From Pseudolysinimonas yzui (GTDB taxonomy: Bacteria; Actinomycetota; Actinomycetes; Actinomycetales; Microbacteriaceae), in assembly GCF_014653215.1 (NCBI RefSeq), contig NZ_BNAI01000001.1:1017012-1081011 (forward strand): a stretch of 64,000 nucleotides of DNA. The letters run 5' to 3'. The notes under the pieces are model-generated. The model saw only the letters and a program-made list of their open reading frames with translations. It had not been told where the DNA came from and ran no database searches. The position numbers and the translations under genes were made by a program. Positions 17,394 to 28,130 of the stretch are shown here, one piece after another (positions within the stretch are counted from its first letter, which is position 1; every line of letters starts with the position of its first letter).

Positions 17394-17777
17394 TTGGCAC
17401 TTGACGCTTTCGGCCGCACCGTCGACGAGGCTCCCCCCGTGTTCGATCAGCACAGTGTCGAGCCGGAGATCCGCGACATCGCGGAAGTGCCGGCGGTCGA
17501 AGTCATCAACACCGTCGCCGTGCATCTGCTCTCCGCCGCGGCCGTGCAGTGCGGCCTCGCCGACGATGACCCGCGCGTCGACCTCGACGAGGCCCGCAAG
17601 CTCATCGACGCCCTCGCCGGCCTCGTGACGGCGGCCGCCCCGCACCTCGCCGACGTGCACGCCCGCCCCCTGCGCGATGGGCTCCGCTCGGTGCAGCTCG
17701 CGTTCCGCGAAGCCTCCGCCATCCCCGACCCGATCGGTCAGGGTCCCGGCGAGAAGTACACCGGCCCCGTCAACTAA
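17394..17777 (+). CDS. DUF1844 domain-containing protein
   Basis: A 127-residue cytoplasmic protein of unknown function, conserved near infC in Actinobacteria. The DUF1844 core reads IAEVPAVEVINTVAVHLLSAAAVQCGL and the C-terminus ends GEKYTGPVN. TTG at 17394 with GAGGA 8 nt upstream is used; a GTG at 17439 (MFDQHSVEPE) is an alternative. It ends one base before the stop of the convergent deaminase gene, so the accessory cassette abuts it but leaves it intact. Confidence 0.8.
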   Translation: MALDAFGRTVDEAPPVFDQHSVEPEIRDIAEVPAVEVINTVAVHLLSAAAVQCGLADDDPRVDLDEARKLIDALAGLVTAAAPHLADVHARPLRDGLRSVQLAFREASAIPDPIGQGPGEKYTGPVN

Positions 17778-17778
17778 G

Positions 17779-20103
17779 TCAAGGCCTACGCGAGATGAGC
17801 TGAGTGCGGACTGTTGGGTCGGTCAGGTCGAAGCCGCCCTTCCGGGCCGTCGGCGCACACCAGGCACGCGATCTATCAAGCACTGCTGTCACACCTCGGT
17901 CGCCGGAGGCGAAAAGGTGGCCGTACTCTCGATGAACTGTCGTTGCAAAGATTCCCGGGTCATCCGAATTGACTGTGATCGGGCGATCCTCGGCCAACCA
18001 GCGCCTCGCTGGCAGTTCGGCATAACTTCCGGCCTCTGTCGTGATCAGATTGGAGGTGGGGCAAGTTTCGATCACCCCACTGCGTTGATCAAGCAGAGCC
18101 CAAGACAGCTCGCGCATTGCGTGCGTGCCTTCGATGAGGACTCCGACGAGCGGATCGAGAGCCACGCCACTCCCGAGGCCCCCAAGTGTCGCTGTCGTCC
18201 CTTCATTGCGCGCGAGGAGAACCGCGAGCTTCTCTTCTGCTGTGGCCGCTGCAAACACCTCTGGCGGTATTTCATTGGTGCGAAAGGTGTAACCCTCTCC
18301 CTCCCGTCGAAGTACGTTGAGTGAAGCCCAATACTCTCGTTGGAACGGCAGCCGCACTGCCTGCGTAACATCTGCCGAACGATCGAATGCCGCGTAGTCG
18401 GGGATGTGCGTTACGACGTCCCAAAAGCGTTCAACTGCGGCGACGGAGACCGCCCCAAAGTCGTGGGCCGCGATTGTCGCGAGATCTCGAAGGATCTCGG
18501 TGGGGGCGCATCCCCGAAGCTTCGCAACCCATTGGCCGCGCGAAAGGTCGTCATCTGCGTTACCGAGTGCGAGGGCATGCCCAACTCTCGCAACCGCGAC
18601 CTCGAAGAAGCTCAGCACCTCAAGCACACGGCGCACACCCGTGCTTGGAAGCGGATACGCCTCACCAGCATGAACCGTGTAGAGCGGTTCGATCGCGTGC
18701 GGCTGAGCCCGACCGGCGATCTCGGCGAAGGCGATCGCGAACGGCCAGTTCGGCGCCGCGTTCTCGTAGCCGACAACGTCGAACGATGACACTAGGGGCG
18801 CCAAGCGAGGTTGGTCTCGCAATAGGCAGTGCCACGCCGCGACGACCCGCCACGCGTTAGCTAGCGACACAGATGTGTCGCGCGCCGACGGCTCGGACCT
18901 CGCAGGGGGCACCGAGCTCTCGCGACGAAAGCTCACTGGCACTTCGATGTAACGCAACGGCAGATTGTCGCGGTCGATCGACTCGAAGACCCCCTCGAGA
19001 AGGGCGTCGAGAGACTGTGCGATTGCCTCACCGCCGCGCGTCGGCGATGCACGGCTGTGAGCCGAGTCGACCTCCCAGTCGACGGTCCGCCTCAGTTCGG
19101 CGGCTTCGAGGCTGCCGAGCGCACAAATGGACTTTCGAGCGAGGTTCACGCCGGTGCGGAGAGCGGTATCCCGTAGGCGACCGGAGAGACGGAACACTCG
19201 GGTGAAACCGTCAAGCCCCTCTTTGATTTCAGGTACCAGGACAGTGTTGGCCTGCACGAGAATTTGCCATGCACCGTCAACCAGGTAATCGACGACGTCG
19301 GAACCGCCCCCCTGGCTGACCCGGTCGAGGTAGCCTTCCAAGAAGGCTCCGAGCGCCGTGACGTCGCCCACACGGTCGACGCGCGACTGCGAATGCGCGA
19401 TCAGGTTGGAAACTGATCGGGGCGCGTCTGGTCCAATGACTTTCTCAGCTTCATCCCAGACCCGCCTCCAATAATCGCGGCGGTTGATCGCTGACCTAAG
19501 TTCCTCATGGATCGCCACGTCGTCGAGGTTCTCGCCGTCGTCGAGATGCGCCGCCGTGTTTAGAGCCACGACGCAGGCGAGCGCAAGAGTCACGAGGTTG
19601 AGCGGTCGGGAGCCCGAGGTCATAACGGACTCACGGCTTGCGACTCCCTCATCCCAGTCGCGGGTCAGCTCGATGAGCAGTTCAACGGCAGAGAGGCAAG
19701 CGCCGTAGTGGACGTGGGCATCAACCGGAAGCCCCAGTTCCTCGATGCCGACTCCTGGGTCCACTCTCTCGGCACTCTGTGGCTTCCAAAGCACGCCTAG
19801 AGCTGCGCGAGCGGCATGATCTCGCGCACTCGCCGCCTCTTCAGGGATCTCCGCACGACTGAGGCAGGAACGTCGCGCAATCACTGCCAACCCCAGCGTC
19901 GGTCTGGCGGTGACGGATAGCGATTCTCGATGGAGGGCAGCGATGCGGTCGGCGAGATCGTTCTGCGGTTCGCTACGCCATCTCACGGCCTCATGGAAGG
20001 CCGGTTTCTGGAAGAAGTCCTCGACGTCGTCGTCCGGGCATGGGGCGAGGTCGGTCGCAAGAGCGACGGCCACCGCTGCGTGTAGCGGGAGTTCGCGTCT
20101 CAC
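17779..20103 (-). CDS. Large adenosine deaminase-like protein, RADAR RdrB candidate
   Basis: A 774-residue protein with every motif of metal-dependent adenosine deaminases: the HxH metal site in DAHVH (129-132), HAGE (478-481, with the catalytic Glu), RVGHAL (506-511), CPTSN (681-685) and NSDDP (712-716, metal and catalytic Asp). The gap between HxH and HAGE is about 350 residues, against about 200 in ordinary adenosine deaminases, matching the enlarged RdrB type. RdrB forms large shells that deaminate adenosine, ATP or RNA during phage infection. The GTG start overlaps the ATPase stop (GTGA). Low GC and atypical codon use suggest transfer. A stand-alone nucleoside deaminase role is less likely given length and partner. 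Confidence 0.85.
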   Translation of the reverse strand: MRRELPLHAAVAVALATDLAPCPDDDVEDFFQKPAFHEAVRWRSEPQNDLADRIAALHRESLSVTARPTLGLAVIARRSCLSRAEIPEEAASARDHAARAALGVLWKPQSAERVDPGVGIEELGLPVDAHVHYGACLSAVELLIELTRDWDEGVASRESVMTSGSRPLNLVTLALACVVALNTAAHLDDGENLDDVAIHEELRSAINRRDYWRRVWDEAEKVIGPDAPRSVSNLIAHSQSRVDRVGDVTALGAFLEGYLDRVSQGGGSDVVDYLVDGAWQILVQANTVLVPEIKEGLDGFTRVFRLSGRLRDTALRTGVNLARKSICALGSLEAAELRRTVDWEVDSAHSRASPTRGGEAIAQSLDALLEGVFESIDRDNLPLRYIEVPVSFRRESSVPPARSEPSARDTSVSLANAWRVVAAWHCLLRDQPRLAPLVSSFDVVGYENAAPNWPFAIAFAEIAGRAQPHAIEPLYTVHAGEAYPLPSTGVRRVLEVLSFFEVAVARVGHALALGNADDDLSRGQWVAKLRGCAPTEILRDLATIAAHDFGAVSVAAVERFWDVVTHIPDYAAFDRSADVTQAVRLPFQREYWASLNVLRREGEGYTFRTNEIPPEVFAAATAEEKLAVLLARNEGTTATLGGLGSGVALDPLVGVLIEGTHAMRELSWALLDQRSGVIETCPTSNLITTEAGSYAELPARRWLAEDRPITVNSDDPGIFATTVHREYGHLFASGDRGVTAVLDRSRAWCAPTARKGGFDLTDPTVRTQLISRRP

Positions 20104-22436
20104 TCGCGGTCGTGAGCGGCGGCGGAGCGTCGAATCGATTCGAGCTCCTCGTGCGCTACGGCGAAGAGTTCATCACGCGCCTTCGCTGTCTGGGCTTGAG
20201 CCGGCTTGCCTGCTCCCGGCTCGCGGCCGTCTAGAGCAGTTGAAACCTGGAGCGCCAGTTCGCCGAGGCGCTTAGCGGCACGTGACTGGATAGCCTCGAT
20301 GTGACGATCACGCAGCTTGTCAGCGGAGCTGAGGTCGAGACGACCGAGTCCATCGAGAAGCGGCTCAATCCACTGTTCCCCGAGGTTCTCACGAATCCGC
20401 GTCTCCAGCGCGCGCACGAGCCCTTCAGTCTTGTGACGGCGTTTCGCGCGGCGGACGACATCGATCCACCACTCCCACGAGTGGTCGTCACCCGACTTAC
20501 CTAGAAACATCGGGTGAAATCCGAGTGGAAGGTATCGCTCGAACCATGCAACGAAGTCGCGATCTCGCTGCGACCTGCTGTTCACTGCAGCCTCATACGC
20601 GGTCGCTAGATCCGCATGCACACGGTCGAGAGCCTGATTCCGCCGTCTTGTCCACGTGGCACCGGTTGGAAGGTCGGGGTCAAGAACGCGACCGAGACGT
20701 GTTACTACAGAGGTGAGTTCGGATCGTTGGACTGCCGCGACGAGCATGAGATGCGCGAGAGCAACACGCTCCGTGACTTGGGTCGTGATTTCGAGCGACT
20801 TTTCCACCGCGGCGAGCCGCTCACAGGCCCACTCCCAATAAGCGAAGAAGGCGTAATAGTCGGAAAATCCTTCCCACGTCGGAAGGGCGAGAAAAAAGTG
20901 ATCGGCAACTTTGCCATCCAAATACACGTCCGCCAAGCGGGTCCCGAAACCGCCAGCGTAAGGGCGGCGGCCACGGACTTGAATATCCGGGTTCAGCGTG
21001 CGAGCCGCGACATCAAGCATCAAGAGAACAGATTGCGCAAGCTCCAGGGGCAGCTTGGCACCTTGTCCGATGGAAAGGACCGGATGGAAGCGGCGATAGA
21101 AGACTACATAGTCGGTCCCGACATCGACCTGACGCGGCGACTCACTCCAGGGTTGAGTCTTGATCTCGCTGAAATCTGCATCGACGGACTCCGCATCGGC
21201 ACCAGAGAATCGCACGAGATTCTCGAGTTCGTTGGCGAGGGCAGGGTCAACGTGACGCAGCGACACGTGCAGCAATTCCAGAGCGACTCTCCAAGCGGCA
21301 GCAGACCCACTCGACTTGTGGCGCTCAATTGCCTTGTAAAGAAACTCGAGATCCCGAAGGCCGGATGGCAGAGCGGAAGCGTACGGTGTAACGCCGAGGC
21401 TGGCGTTTCGTCGGCGGTCTCCGAATGCCTTAGGTAGCGGAACTCGGAAAAGTTCTGAGAGTGCCGTCTCCTCGTCGGTGATATGGCTGGGAAGCCAAAT
21501 CTGACCCAGGAGTCCCTCTAGGGACTCCGTCGCGCCCACCGGCGTGAACGTGAGCTTTGCCTCATCGCTCAGGGGATGGAGGTGAACTCGGCGGTGTGTT
21601 GGAAGGCTCTTTGTTAGGGCCGCGTCAGCGAACTGAATCGCGTCACGGTAGCCCACATCACCGGCGGTGCCATCGCGCACCGAAGCCGCAAACGACCTCT
21701 GCGCATGCTCGTAGCTCAGAGCCGCAATGCACACAACGCGAGGCGTCGAGGCTATGCGCCTGATGTCGAGCAAGATTTGGGGAAGCATGCCTGGCGCGAG
21801 ATCAGCATCGTCGACAGGGATCACAAGCGTGCGCCCGGTACTCGCGAGTAGGCCATCAATTAGCGCCCGCCACTCGTCAACGAAACCTAGGCCGCGGCGC
21901 GAAACACTGACGAGCGCTTGAGCTTGCTCATCGAGGGTCCAGGCTCCGGCCGTCCCCAGAGTTCCGTGCCGTCCGGAAGCTTCCTTGAAGGCAAGTTCGT
22001 CAAGCCAGCCCGCCGCAGAACGTTCCTCACCTCTGTAGGAGATGCGCCTGCCACGAAGATCCTCGTCTTCGTTGATGCTCGCCATCATGCTGGCCAAGAG
22101 GACGCTATAAAGCGTGTCGCCTCTGTCAAAGAACTCCGGACGAATCACGCGAGTTACGAGGTAGCGGTCGTCCAACTCGAGTTGGGCGCAAACTTGCGCC
22201 AGAGTGTACGTCTTGCCGCTCCCTCGGTCGCCAAGAATCGACACTGTTTGGCACGGATCCAGCGCCGCTTCGGAACCGAGCCCTCCAGCTTTCTGACCGT
22301 CGGCGGACTCGAACCCGTCTCGCTCGGCAAGTTCGGCGACATACTCCACGACTCGGGCTACGGAGTCCGCGATTCGTCCGGAGAGCCGCACGCGGTTTCG
22401 CTGAGGGGACGCCGATGCCGTCGTTGTAGGGCTCAC
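20100..22436 (-). CDS. P-loop ATPase, RADAR RdrA candidate
   Basis: A 778-residue AAA+-like ATPase. Walker A is GDRGSGKT (69-76) and the Walker B-like strand is TLVIPVDDADLAP (203-215), with acidic residues D209, D210 and D212. The remaining 550 residues look mostly helical and have no signature I recognise. Length, P-loop position and coupling to a giant adenosine deaminase fit RdrA, the ring-forming sensor/ATPase of RADAR, encoded upstream of rdrB as here. GTG start, overlapping the small upstream gene by 4 nt. A hand-counted line (20461-20520) is 53 percent GC. Confidence 0.82.
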   Translation of the reverse strand: MSPTTTASASPQRNRVRLSGRIADSVARVVEYVAELAERDGFESADGQKAGGLGSEAALDPCQTVSILGDRGSGKTYTLAQVCAQLELDDRYLVTRVIRPEFFDRGDTLYSVLLASMMASINEDEDLRGRRISYRGEERSAAGWLDELAFKEASGRHGTLGTAGAWTLDEQAQALVSVSRRGLGFVDEWRALIDGLLASTGRTLVIPVDDADLAPGMLPQILLDIRRIASTPRVVCIAALSYEHAQRSFAASVRDGTAGDVGYRDAIQFADAALTKSLPTHRRVHLHPLSDEAKLTFTPVGATESLEGLLGQIWLPSHITDEETALSELFRVPLPKAFGDRRRNASLGVTPYASALPSGLRDLEFLYKAIERHKSSGSAAAWRVALELLHVSLRHVDPALANELENLVRFSGADAESVDADFSEIKTQPWSESPRQVDVGTDYVVFYRRFHPVLSIGQGAKLPLELAQSVLLMLDVAARTLNPDIQVRGRRPYAGGFGTRLADVYLDGKVADHFFLALPTWEGFSDYYAFFAYWEWACERLAAVEKSLEITTQVTERVALAHLMLVAAVQRSELTSVVTRLGRVLDPDLPTGATWTRRRNQALDRVHADLATAYEAAVNSRSQRDRDFVAWFERYLPLGFHPMFLGKSGDDHSWEWWIDVVRRAKRRHKTEGLVRALETRIRENLGEQWIEPLLDGLGRLDLSSADKLRDRHIEAIQSRAAKRLGELALQVSTALDGREPGAGKPAQAQTAKARDELFAVAHEELESIRRSAAAHDRE

Positions 22437-22768
22437 TGCGCCACCTTGCCGTCGGATTCGCGCGCGGTGCGATTGTGCTGTGCGACAGAATCTCTCACCT
22501 GTACGCGCACGTCCTCATAGGCCGCCGCCCCGGCCACCTGAATTTCCGCATCCGAGATGTTCTCTCGAATCCACTCGATCGCTCGGTCATCGCCGTCCTC
22601 AAGCGCTGCGATGAACTGCTGGAGACGAGCCGGGCTGAGTCCCCGGGCGAGCCGCTCTCCGGCCACCAACCGAATAGTCTCAACAACGTCGCGCGCAAGC
22701 TGTTCGTTGTGACGACGGTCAGACGCGTCCAAGCCGACGCTCTCTATGAACGACTGGTCTACGCGCAC
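22433..22768 (-). CDS. Small helical protein leading the RADAR-like operon (DUF5663-like)
   Basis: A 111-residue acidic, predicted all-helical protein with no membrane segment. The pattern (FIESVGLDASD, then LARGLSPARLQQFIAALEDGDDRAIEWIRENI) resembles DUF5663, a short family of unknown function; this is by eye. GTG start with AGGAG 6 nt upstream, the best ribosome site of the operon. A TAGGAT at 22799-22804 on the minus strand could be its -10. Its end overlaps the ATPase gene by 4 nt. It is neither SLATT- nor Csx27-like, the membrane accessories known with RADAR, so it may be a new accessory, regulator or inhibitor. Confidence 0.6.
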   Translation of the reverse strand: MRVDQSFIESVGLDASDRRHNEQLARDVVETIRLVAGERLARGLSPARLQQFIAALEDGDDRAIEWIRENISDAEIQVAGAAAYEDVRVQVRDSVAQHNRTARESDGKVAQ

Positions 22769-22866: not shown

Positions 22867-23619
22867 TCAGAGCGACTCGAGGCGCACCGCGATCGAGTCG
22901 ACGCGGTCGAGGATGACGGGGGATGCCGCCCAGGCATCGCCGAGTCGCGCGAGCAGGGCATCCAATTCGGTGCGGTCGAGGCCGCTCTCCAGGGCGAGCT
23001 GCACGAGCAGTTCGGGCCCGGTGAGGCGGGCGTCGGGGTCGCCGGGGGCGAGTTGCACGGCCCGCACGGCCGACTCCGCCGCCGATGCCGCGAGGAACGC
23101 GTCGAGCACCCGCTCGTCGAGGAAGCATGGGATGAACGTCGCACCGGTCGCGAGCGCCTCGAACGCCGTGCGACGCAGGGCGAACTCGGTCGGCGACCCG
23201 GGGTCGAGCACGATCGCGCCAAGTTCGTCGGCTGCCGCAGCGAGGGCCGCCTGCGGTGCGGTCACCGGGATGGGCCGCGCGGCCGGATTCCAGGTGCGCA
23301 TCGCCTCGACCGACGAGAACACGGGCAGCACGTTGCGCCCGGCGGGCCCGGCGACGGTGACCAGCGCGAGCTCCTGAGTCTTATCGACCAGCTGTCCGTG
23401 CGGTCCGATGCCCTCATCGCCGCGGTCGGTCACGAGGGGAACCAGCACCCGAGCCGCGCCAAGCGCCAGGAGTACCTCCGACATCCCGAGCTCGCGGGCC
23501 CGGAAGCGCAGCACCGCTTCGATCAGCCGCGCATCGGCCGAGCCGTCGTCATCCGCCGACGGGTTCGCGTGAAAGGAGCGCCCGTCGAACGGGATGCCGG
23601 CGGAGTCGGCGTGAGCCAC
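22867..23619 (-). CDS. SseB family protein
   Basis: A 250-residue cytoplasmic protein with an SseB-type domain: LVPLVTDRGDEG and LVTVAGPAGRNVLPVFSSVE match the enhanced-serine-sensitivity family, whose biochemical role is unknown. GTG start. It lies 7 nt after priA and probably belongs to the histidine transcription unit, as in related genomes. The RADAR-like cassette lies just downstream, separating it from DUF1844. Confidence 0.82.
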   Translation of the reverse strand: MAHADSAGIPFDGRSFHANPSADDDGSADARLIEAVLRFRARELGMSEVLLALGAARVLVPLVTDRGDEGIGPHGQLVDKTQELALVTVAGPAGRNVLPVFSSVEAMRTWNPAARPIPVTAPQAALAAAADELGAIVLDPGSPTEFALRRTAFEALATGATFIPCFLDERVLDAFLAASAAESAVRAVQLAPGDPDARLTGPELLVQLALESGLDRTELDALLARLGDAWAASPVILDRVDSIAVRLESL

Positions 23620-27335: not shown

Positions 27336-27376
27336 TCGAACAAATGTTTGTCGGAGCGACCGAGAACGGATACAGT
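27336..27376 (+). promoter_or_regulatory. lexA: lexA promoter with overlapping LexA box 2
   Basis: -35 TTGTCG (27348-27353) and -10 TACAGT (27371-27376) are 17 nt apart. A second LexA box, TCGAACAAATGTTTGT (27336-27351; GAAC-N4-GTTT, one mismatch), overlaps the -35, which fits autorepression by LexA. Confidence 0.7.
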
Positions 27377-27446
27377 TTCGATCGCCGGGATGATTCGATC
27401 ACCGACCACCGACATCGGCACTCGACCGGCGGCACGAGGAGGCACC

Positions 27447-28130
27447 GTGGACGACACGCAAGACCAGGACGCCGCAGCAGACCGGCCCCAGACGAGACGA
27501 CGCACGTCGCTGAGCGAGAAGCAGACGGCCATCCTCGAGATGATCCAGCGCTCCGTCGCATCGCGCGGCTATCCGCCGAGCATGCGCGAGATCGGGGATG
27601 CCGTGGGGCTCTCGTCGCTCTCGAGCGTCACCCACCAGCTCACCCAGCTCGAGCTATCGGGCTACCTGCGGCGCGATCCGAACCGGCCGCGGGCGCTCGA
27701 AGTGCTCATCGAACTGCCGGGTACCGAATCCTCCGACTCGGGCATTCCCGTCGGCGACGCCGCCATGGTGCCGCTCGTCGGGCGCATCGCCGCCGGCATC
27801 CCGATCACCGCCGACCAGCAGATCGACGAGGTCTTCCCGCTCCCCCGTCAGCTCGTCGGCAAGGGCGACCTGTTCATGCTCAAGGTCGTCGGCGAGTCGA
27901 TGATCGACGCGGCGATCTGCGACGGCGACTGGGTCGTCGTGCGACAGCAGAAGAGCGCCGAGAACGGCGAGATCGTCGCAGCCCTGCTCGACGGGGAGGC
28001 GACCGTCAAGGTGTTCCGCCAGCGCGACGGCCATGTCTGGCTGCTGCCGCGCAACTCGGCGTTCGAGCCGATCGTCGGCGACGACGCCGAGATCCTCGGC
28101 AAGATCGTCGCGGTGCTGAGGTCGGTCTAG
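27447..28130 (+). CDS. lexA: SOS response repressor LexA
   Basis: A 227-residue repressor-protease. A winged helix (about 21-85) recognises SOS boxes and the C-terminal S24 domain self-cleaves on RecA filaments. The cleavage bond is Ala116-Gly117 in RIAAGIPI, the catalytic pair Ser151 (GESMIDA) and Lys188 (ATVKVF). GTG at 27447 with GGAGG 4 nt upstream is chosen, since earlier in-frame starts lie inside or next to the promoter. It overlaps the convergent ROK gene by 4 nt. Confidence 0.95.

What the first reader, a model, noticed from the sequence alone, without database searches (positions are those of the whole stretch)
17779..22768. RADAR-like antiphage operon in a Microbacteriaceae-type chromosome
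Two large coupled genes encode a 778-residue P-loop ATPase (GDRGSGKT; IPVDDADL) and a 774-residue deaminase with all adenosine-deaminase motifs (HVH, HAGE, RVGH, CPTSN, SDDP) and an unusually long gap between the first two. ATPase first, deaminase second, each about 775 residues, is the RdrA-RdrB layout of RADAR. Both proteins look intact, so the system is probably functional. The sequence is distant enough that a name search might label the parts only as hypothetical protein and amidohydrolase.
Basis: partly seen in the sequence, partly recalled or inferred. Interest (0 to 1): 0.9.

Follow-up and report, generated by a model that had tools for sequence, protein, structure and literature searches.

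The report
Deeply divergent RADAR antiphage operon, Actinomycetota
This actinobacterial genome carries a three-gene insert whose two large genes are very distant relatives of the RADAR antiphage machine, which in studied cases converts cellular ATP to ITP during infection; it is a new, outlying branch of a known defence system, with an extra small gene not seen in the other copies examined.

Summary
The finding holds. Window 17779-20103(-) encodes a 774-aa deaminase and 20100-22436(-) a 778-aa AAA+ ATPase. They are homologous to RdrB and RdrA of RADAR by profile, motif and predicted fold. Both proteins match the cryo-EM RADAR structures best in the PDB, clearly above ADA or ORC.

The pair is far outside the sampled range. 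Full-length RdrBs from seven phyla score at least about 280 bits against a RADAR profile, and RdrAs mostly above 180; this pair scores 70 and 16. Its RdrB branches between ordinary deaminases and all 60 sampled RdrBs. No relative turned up in about 940 actinobacterial genomes sampled.

(1) A third small gene (22433-22768, 111 aa, soluble, weakly DUF5663-like) starts the operon; both junctions are 4-nt start/stop overlaps. (2) The genes have low GC3 and sit exactly between two convergent housekeeping genes that adjoin in relatives, so this is an acquired island. (3) Several residues near-invariant in RADAR are changed: HAGE-AY instead of HxGE-DF, no sensor-1 Asp, no IDPTL motif.

Most likely it is a functional RADAR-type (d)ATP deaminase, perhaps with altered regulation or substrate pocket. 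Activity is untested.

The parts
22433..22768 (-). gene 1 of the operon: 111-aa soluble protein, weakly DUF5663-like; no relative in any other RADAR locus examined
   Evidence: ORF; Pfam DUF5663 22.3 bits vs cut-off 23.7, E 2e-4; AGGAG upstream of GTG; GC by codon position 0.75/0.42/0.71; no membrane-like segment; stop overlaps RdrA start
20100..22436 (-). gene 2: RdrA-like AAA+ ATPase, 778 aa
   Evidence: NCBIfam RdrA 6.5e-8, PADLOC RdrA 6.3e-5, hhalign to the RdrA family score 109 over residues 59-292, VIA Z 21.2 to 8hr8 vs 12.7 best non-RADAR
22209..22232 (-). Walker A GDRGSGKT (RdrA residues 69-76)
   Evidence: sequence; R71 G72 G74 K75 invariant in 49 RdrAs
21798..21821 (-). Walker B IPVDDADL (RdrA residues 206-213)
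   Evidence: D209 D210 invariant in 49 RdrAs
17779..20103 (-). gene 3: RdrB-like adenosine-deaminase-fold protein, 774 aa
   Evidence: NCBIfam RdrB 4.8e-13, PADLOC RdrB 1.6e-8, hhalign score 169 over 441 columns, Foldseek top 8 = RdrB, VIA Z 22.7
19708..19716 (-). HVH zinc ligands H130, H132
   Evidence: aligned with E. coli RdrB H152/H154; invariant in 53 RdrBs
18661..18672 (-). HAGE: zinc ligand H478 and catalytic E481
   Evidence: aligned with E. coli H498/E501; the D-F that follows in RdrB is A-Y here
18577..18588 (-). RVGH: H509, fourth His of the tetrad
   Evidence: aligned with E. coli H530
18049..18063 (-). CPTSN motif (residues 681-685)
17956..17967 (-). SDDP motif (residues 713-716)
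17394..17777 (+). flank: DUF1844 gene, its stop codon one base from the RdrB stop codon
   Evidence: Pfam DUF1844 1.6e-15; adjacent to SseB in 5 relatives
22867..23619 (-). flank: SseB-domain gene, upstream border of the island
   Evidence: Pfam SseB 2.5e-24

Best explanation
The locus is a horizontally acquired, translationally coupled operon (small gene, rdrA, rdrB) encoding a deeply divergent RADAR antiphage system. By analogy with E. coli RADAR (PMC9994260), the RdrA-like AAA+ ATPase would form a ring that docks on the RdrB shell and, when a phage infects, switches on the RdrB-like zinc deaminase. RdrB would then convert ATP/dATP to ITP/dITP and block phage replication. Shown here: the genes, their homology, conserved catalytic residues, RdrB-type insertions, the predicted RdrA-type crown insertion and the insertion site. 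Inferred: assembly, activation, substrate and defence. The 111-aa protein probably regulates or bridges RdrA; this is a guess from its place as coupled first gene.
For: RdrB: NCBIfam 4.8e-13, PADLOC 1.6e-8. Profile-profile score is 169 over 441 columns through insertions 2 and 3, versus 108 over 59 columns for ordinary ADA. His tetrad, catalytic Glu, Asp pair and CPTSN all align, with the spacing of E. coli RdrB. Foldseek's top 8 hits are RdrB, TMq mostly about 0.5, versus 0.27 for the best ADA; VIA Z 22.7 over 572 residues versus 17.3 over 311. RdrA: NCBIfam 6.5e-8 and the only hit in 395 actinomycete genomes. K75, D209/D210, K276, R283 and sensor-2 R361 are kept. AAA+ domain pLDDT mostly 80-93 with a helical crown; Z 21.2 to RdrA versus 12.7 to ORC. 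Order rdrA-rdrB as in 61 other pairs. GC3 0.64-0.71 versus 0.85-0.91 in neighbours, and an empty site in 5 relatives. Tree: RdrB plus window separated from ADA at 99/87.
Against: All profile scores are far below curated cut-offs. The window RdrB's score against a small RdrB profile (70 bits) is no higher than that of two ADA-length proteins (79-80 bits), so the score alone does not separate it from ADA; the alignment length, insertions and operon context do. Only 46 of 85 columns at least 90% conserved in other RdrBs, and 21 of 43 in RdrAs, are kept. Changed positions include the D-F after HxGE, sensor-1 Gly-Asp (Leu-Ser here) and IDPTL (IRPEF here). The AF2 models are mediocre (pLDDT 57-58), were built on RADAR alignments, and leave the RdrA C-terminal half untested. 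No close relative exists to show selection on the pair.
Confidence: 0.84

Rival explanations
1. A separate, RADAR-like two-component system: the deaminase acts on a different substrate (AMP, adenosine, a nucleotide signal or a modified phage nucleotide), and the ATPase uses different sensing. Same architecture, different chemistry.
For: RdrB-specific residues near the active site differ: A482-Y483 for D-F, L485 for H, R384 for H, W453 for E. RdrA lacks the sensor-1 Asp and IDPTL. Long end branch of 3.4 and sister position to all RdrBs. Unique third gene.
Against: Catalytic tetrad, Glu and Asp pair are all kept, and the insertion sizes match RdrB. The fold matches RdrB over the whole chain. Other outlying RADARs also lack some of these residues (for example the sensor-1 position in Aureibacter).
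Confidence: 0.2
2. An ordinary or CRISPR-linked adenosine deaminase (Cad1-like) next to an unrelated STAND/ORC-type ATPase by chance.
For: The strongest local similarity of the deaminase is to the ADA C-terminal motif block (Pfam A_deaminase 1.3e-11; CARF_ADA 1.5e-6).
Against: ADA similarity covers only about 60 residues, while the RdrB profile aligns across 441 columns. The CARF_ADA hit is confined to the ADA block (673-728). The ATPase matches RdrA beyond the P-loop, including the LTK...R..LHPL segment. The two genes overlap and sit in the RADAR order.
Confidence: 0.03
3. A decayed RADAR remnant: open frames retained but inactive through changed residues.
For: Loss of residues conserved in most RADARs; RdrA is the shortest of 62.
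Against: Three intact, coupled genes, the first two with Shine-Dalgarno-like sites; all catalytic residues kept; no frameshift or stop. Selection could not be measured without relatives.
Confidence: 0.07

Closest known systems
RADAR (RdrA-RdrB) of Escherichia coli P0304799.3, PDB 8fnt/8fnv/8fnw, and the RADAR entries 8hr7-8hrc
   Same: Gene order, AAA+ ATPase with crown insertion, deaminase with insertions in the same places, His tetrad + Glu, best fold match for both proteins
   Different: Only 15-18% identity to E. coli-type copies; RdrA 778 vs 947 aa; HAGEAY vs HVGEDF; no sensor-1 Asp; no EEE interface; extra small first gene
RADAR of Rhizobium plasmids (L029, L030) and other rhizobial loci
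   Same: Share RVGHAxALG, SDDxGIFxT, PTSN
   Different: RdrA 993-1010 aa; about 15-20% identity on the larger alignments
RADAR with a third gene: SLATT-like (Aureibacter, L033), VanZ-family (Cetobacterium, L034)
   Same: Extra gene coupled to or next to rdrAB
   Different: Those genes are downstream of rdrB and belong to families known as membrane proteins (own knowledge); here the gene is upstream, soluble and DUF5663-like
Cad1 (CARF-ADA)
   Same: Adenosine-deaminase fold; ATP to ITP chemistry in defence (PMC11645235, title)
   Different: No CARF domain here; weaker fold match (Z about 16.7); here the deaminase is paired with an ATPase

Membership tests
RADAR | rdrA and rdrB encoded in tandem, ATPase first | tested here: met
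   20100-22436 then 17779-20103 on the minus strand, 4-nt overlap; same order in 61 loci
RADAR | Profile match to RdrA and RdrB above the NCBIfam curated cut-off (an annotation threshold, not a biological definition) | tested here: not met
   Significant but sub-threshold: RdrB 48.5 bits vs 800, RdrA 31.5 vs 600. An E. coli RADAR pair itself scores only 73-89 bits with PADLOC models, so such scores do not delimit the family
RADAR | RdrB zinc His tetrad and catalytic Glu | tested here: met
   H130, H132, H478, H509, E481 (E. coli numbering)
RADAR | RdrB insertions 1-3 in the ADA core | tested here: met
   About 130 residues before HVH; 346 residues between HVH and HAGE; 173 between RVGH and CPTSN; fold match along 1-753, on a model of middling confidence
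RADAR | RdrA Walker A, Walker B, sensor 2 Arg | tested here: met
   K75, D209/D210, R361
RADAR | RdrA sensor 1 Asp (E. coli D253); not strictly defining, since some accepted RdrAs lack it | tested here: not met
   Ser241 at a column that is Asp in 44 of 48 RdrAs
RADAR | RdrA helical crown insertion contacting RdrB | tested here: met
   Helices between residues 101 and 200 predicted, pLDDT mostly 70-90 with a dip to about 50 at residues 150-170; K150/E151/R162 of E. coli not recognisable
RADAR | RdrA C-terminal helical domain | tested here: inconclusive
   Predicted helical but pLDDT mostly under 50
RADAR | RdrA heptamer, RdrB dodecamer, giant complex | not testable with these tools
   Needs EM
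RADAR | ATP/dATP deamination and phage defence | not testable with these tools
   Needs assay
Cad1 / CARF-ADA | N-terminal CARF domain | tested here: not met
   PADLOC CARF_ADA match has its best stretch at residues 673-728 (ADA block); no CARF domain by Pfam
Housekeeping adenosine deaminase | About 340 aa, no large insertions | tested here: not met
   774 aa; ADA profile aligns only 59 columns

The most novel reading that the evidence does not exclude
A separate RADAR subtype that split off before all RADARs sampled here, with a soluble DUF5663-like third subunit and a remodelled deaminase pocket and ATPase sensor, acting on a substrate or trigger different from that of (d)ATP-deaminating RADAR.
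Probability: 0.25. Interest if true: 0.7.

Novelty: new variant of a known kind. Interest (0 to 1): 0.48.

Why it matters
RADAR is rare (270 of about 38,000 genomes in PMC9994260), and its trigger is unknown. A natural pair that keeps the catalytic core and architecture but changes residues otherwise almost invariant helps show which features are essential. It also shows that present NCBIfam cut-offs (600-800 bits) miss deep branches, so the range of RADAR is probably underestimated, Actinomycetota included.

Tried and rejected
Close relatives were sought in 149 + 400 + 396 partly overlapping genome samples (RdrA protein), in viral contigs, in plasmids and with the RdrA family model in 395 actinomycete genomes: none found. 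Weak hits in G134 and G009 are an unrelated P-loop protein and a spurious frame. The class-wide search with RdrB returned mostly ADA-like matches through the C-terminal motif block. The nine-sequence alignment was too divergent to scan with, so a three-sequence one was used. That scan rests on two peptide patterns, so the absence of Actinomycetota among its RADARs is not proof. Gene 1 was sought among neighbours of the RADAR loci, plasmids, phages and viral contigs without a relative. DUF5663 is rare in the class (4 of 217 genomes); one clear member sits beside a TPR gene, which gave no functional clue. Actinobacterial ADAs could not be extracted for the tree, so the outgroup is mostly Bdellovibrio ADAs. 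No consensus promoter was found, which means little in this phylum. Accessory genes of other RADAR loci were compared and show no common third gene.

Full report
Observation. The interval also holds a third ORF, 22433-22768(-), 111 aa. Its GTG follows AGGAG, and its stop codon overlaps the GTG of the ATPase; the ATPase stop overlaps the GTG of the deaminase in the same way. The operon therefore reads gene 1 - rdrA - rdrB. The lower GC of the stretch (0.61-0.64 against about 0.69) comes with GC3 of 0.64-0.71, against 0.85-0.91 in infC, rplT, SseB, hisA, hisH and DUF1844. The genome is actinobacterial: it holds two WhiB genes, a family that among 14 control genomes rings only in Corynebacterium.

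Identity. PADLOC gives RdrB 1.6e-8 and RdrA 6.3e-5; NCBIfam gives RdrB 4.8e-13 and RdrA 6.5e-8, far below its cut-offs. Pfam sees only A_deaminase and weak AAA-type matches. As a control for the ATPase, the NCBIfam RdrA model over 395 actinomycete genomes rings only here. As a control for the scale, an E. coli-type RADAR pair from a viral contig scores 89 and 73 bits with PADLOC models, against 31 and 19 here.

Comparison set. With a piece of the solved E. coli RdrB, seven plasmid RADARs and three viral-contig copies were found. A three-sequence profile scan of 84,980 species genomes gave 76 loci, most of them RADAR, from Pseudomonadota, Bacteroidota, Thermodesulfobacteriota, Myxococcota, Spirochaetota, Bacillota and Altimarinota; none was actinobacterial. 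Sixty-one loci have both genes near full length, rdrA upstream of rdrB. Against a seven-sequence RADAR profile, full-length RdrBs score at least about 280 bits and the window protein 70. ADA-length proteins score 28-80, so this score alone does not place it. Most RdrAs score above 180 bits and the window RdrA 16.

Membership. Aligned to the full RdrB family by HH-suite, the window deaminase matches over residues 245-734 (score 169), whereas the ADA family matches 59 columns (score 108). The ATPase matches RdrA over 59-292 (score 109), including the segment LTKSLPTHRRVHLHPL that follows sensor 1 in RdrA. Catalytic residues map onto the published E. coli numbering: H130/H132/H478/H509 and E481 in RdrB; K75, D209/D210 and R361 in RdrA. 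The spacing of the ADA motifs is close to that of E. coli RdrB, so insertions 2 and 3 are present in size.

Structure. AlphaFold2 with 52 and 48 distant relatives gave models of pLDDT 57.8 (RdrB) and 56.5 (RdrA, but mostly 80-93 over the AAA+ domain). Foldseek's first eight hits for RdrB and first eighteen for RdrA are RADAR cryo-EM chains. VIA-align gives Z 22.7 (572 residues, rmsd 4.7) for RdrB against 17.3 (311 residues, 3.6) for the best ADA, and Z 21.2 (444 residues, 5.4) for RdrA against 12.7 (229 residues, 4.7) for ORC. The alignments consisted of RADAR proteins, so the models lean that way; the sequence evidence is independent of this.

Difference. The pair keeps 46 of 85 near-invariant RdrB columns and 21 of 43 near-invariant RdrA columns. 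Changes lie in places that matter. After the catalytic HxGE, the Asp-Phe present in at least 50 of 52 RdrBs is Ala-Tyr. The consensus residues at positions 384 (H), 453 (E) and 485 (H) are Arg, Trp and Leu. In RdrA the Gly-Asp of sensor 1 is Leu-Ser, and IDPTL is IRPEF. In a tree of the ADA core the window falls between ADA and all 60 RdrBs, on the RdrB side (99/87), with an end branch of 3.4 changes per column. With such a branch the exact depth is unsure. RdrA is also shorter (778 aa) than any of the 61 compared.

Neighbourhood. In five of eleven same-family relatives, the SseB gene and the convergent DUF1844 gene lie side by side, followed by infC; in the other six the 1.5-kb flanks held show neither DUF1844 nor infC. 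In the window the three genes stand exactly between them, with the RdrB stop codon one base from the DUF1844 stop codon. No integrase or transposase gene was recognised inside the island, and the window has no tRNA. This is a clean acquired island in one genome, not a lineage trait.

Gene 1. It matches DUF5663 just under the cut-off (22.3 vs 23.7 bits), has no membrane-like segment, and has no relative beside other RADARs or in plasmids, phages or viral contigs (the best phage matches are at E 0.3). Accessory genes seen in other RADAR loci here are a SLATT-like protein downstream in Aureibacter and a VanZ-family protein in Cetobacterium. Its role is open; position suggests a regulator or adaptor of RdrA.

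Mechanism. From E. coli (PMC9994260): RdrA heptamers dock on an RdrB dodecamer, and RdrB converts ATP and dATP to ITP and dITP during infection; both active sites are needed. The catalytic core here is complete, so the same chemistry is the first expectation (about 75% by judgement). The pocket and sensor changes leave room for another substrate or trigger. Nothing here shows activity.

Verdict. The new points are its depth of divergence, the third gene, the insertion site and the altered residues.

Noticed in passing
L030 7453-9054 (Rhizobium leguminosarum plasmid pRLN3): A gene annotated adenylosuccinate synthetase (an IMP-using enzyme) lies about 0.9 kb downstream of rdrB on the same strand. 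No other RADAR locus examined has one, so it may be chance.
   Followed up: partly
L125 1447-1833: A clear DUF5663 gene in another actinomycete overlaps the end of a TPR-like gene and lies about 1 kb from a short cysteine-bearing peptide reading frame that looks like a RiPP precursor.
   Followed up: no
L088 1387-2079 (also L092, L095): Three Bacteroidota RADAR loci share a YgjP-like metallopeptidase gene ending 12 nt before rdrA; probably a neighbour, possibly part of the unit.
   Followed up: partly
L031 (Salmonella plasmid pIndS104-CTX): A RADAR pair annotated only as 'hypothetical protein' on a plasmid named for CTX, next to a transposase-like ORF.
   Followed up: no
L050 5526-7885: RdrB homologue split into two overlapping frames (frameshift or sequencing error).
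   Followed up: no
window 27348-28127: LexA repressor gene about 4.6 kb beyond the island; no link to the operon was looked for.
   Followed up: no
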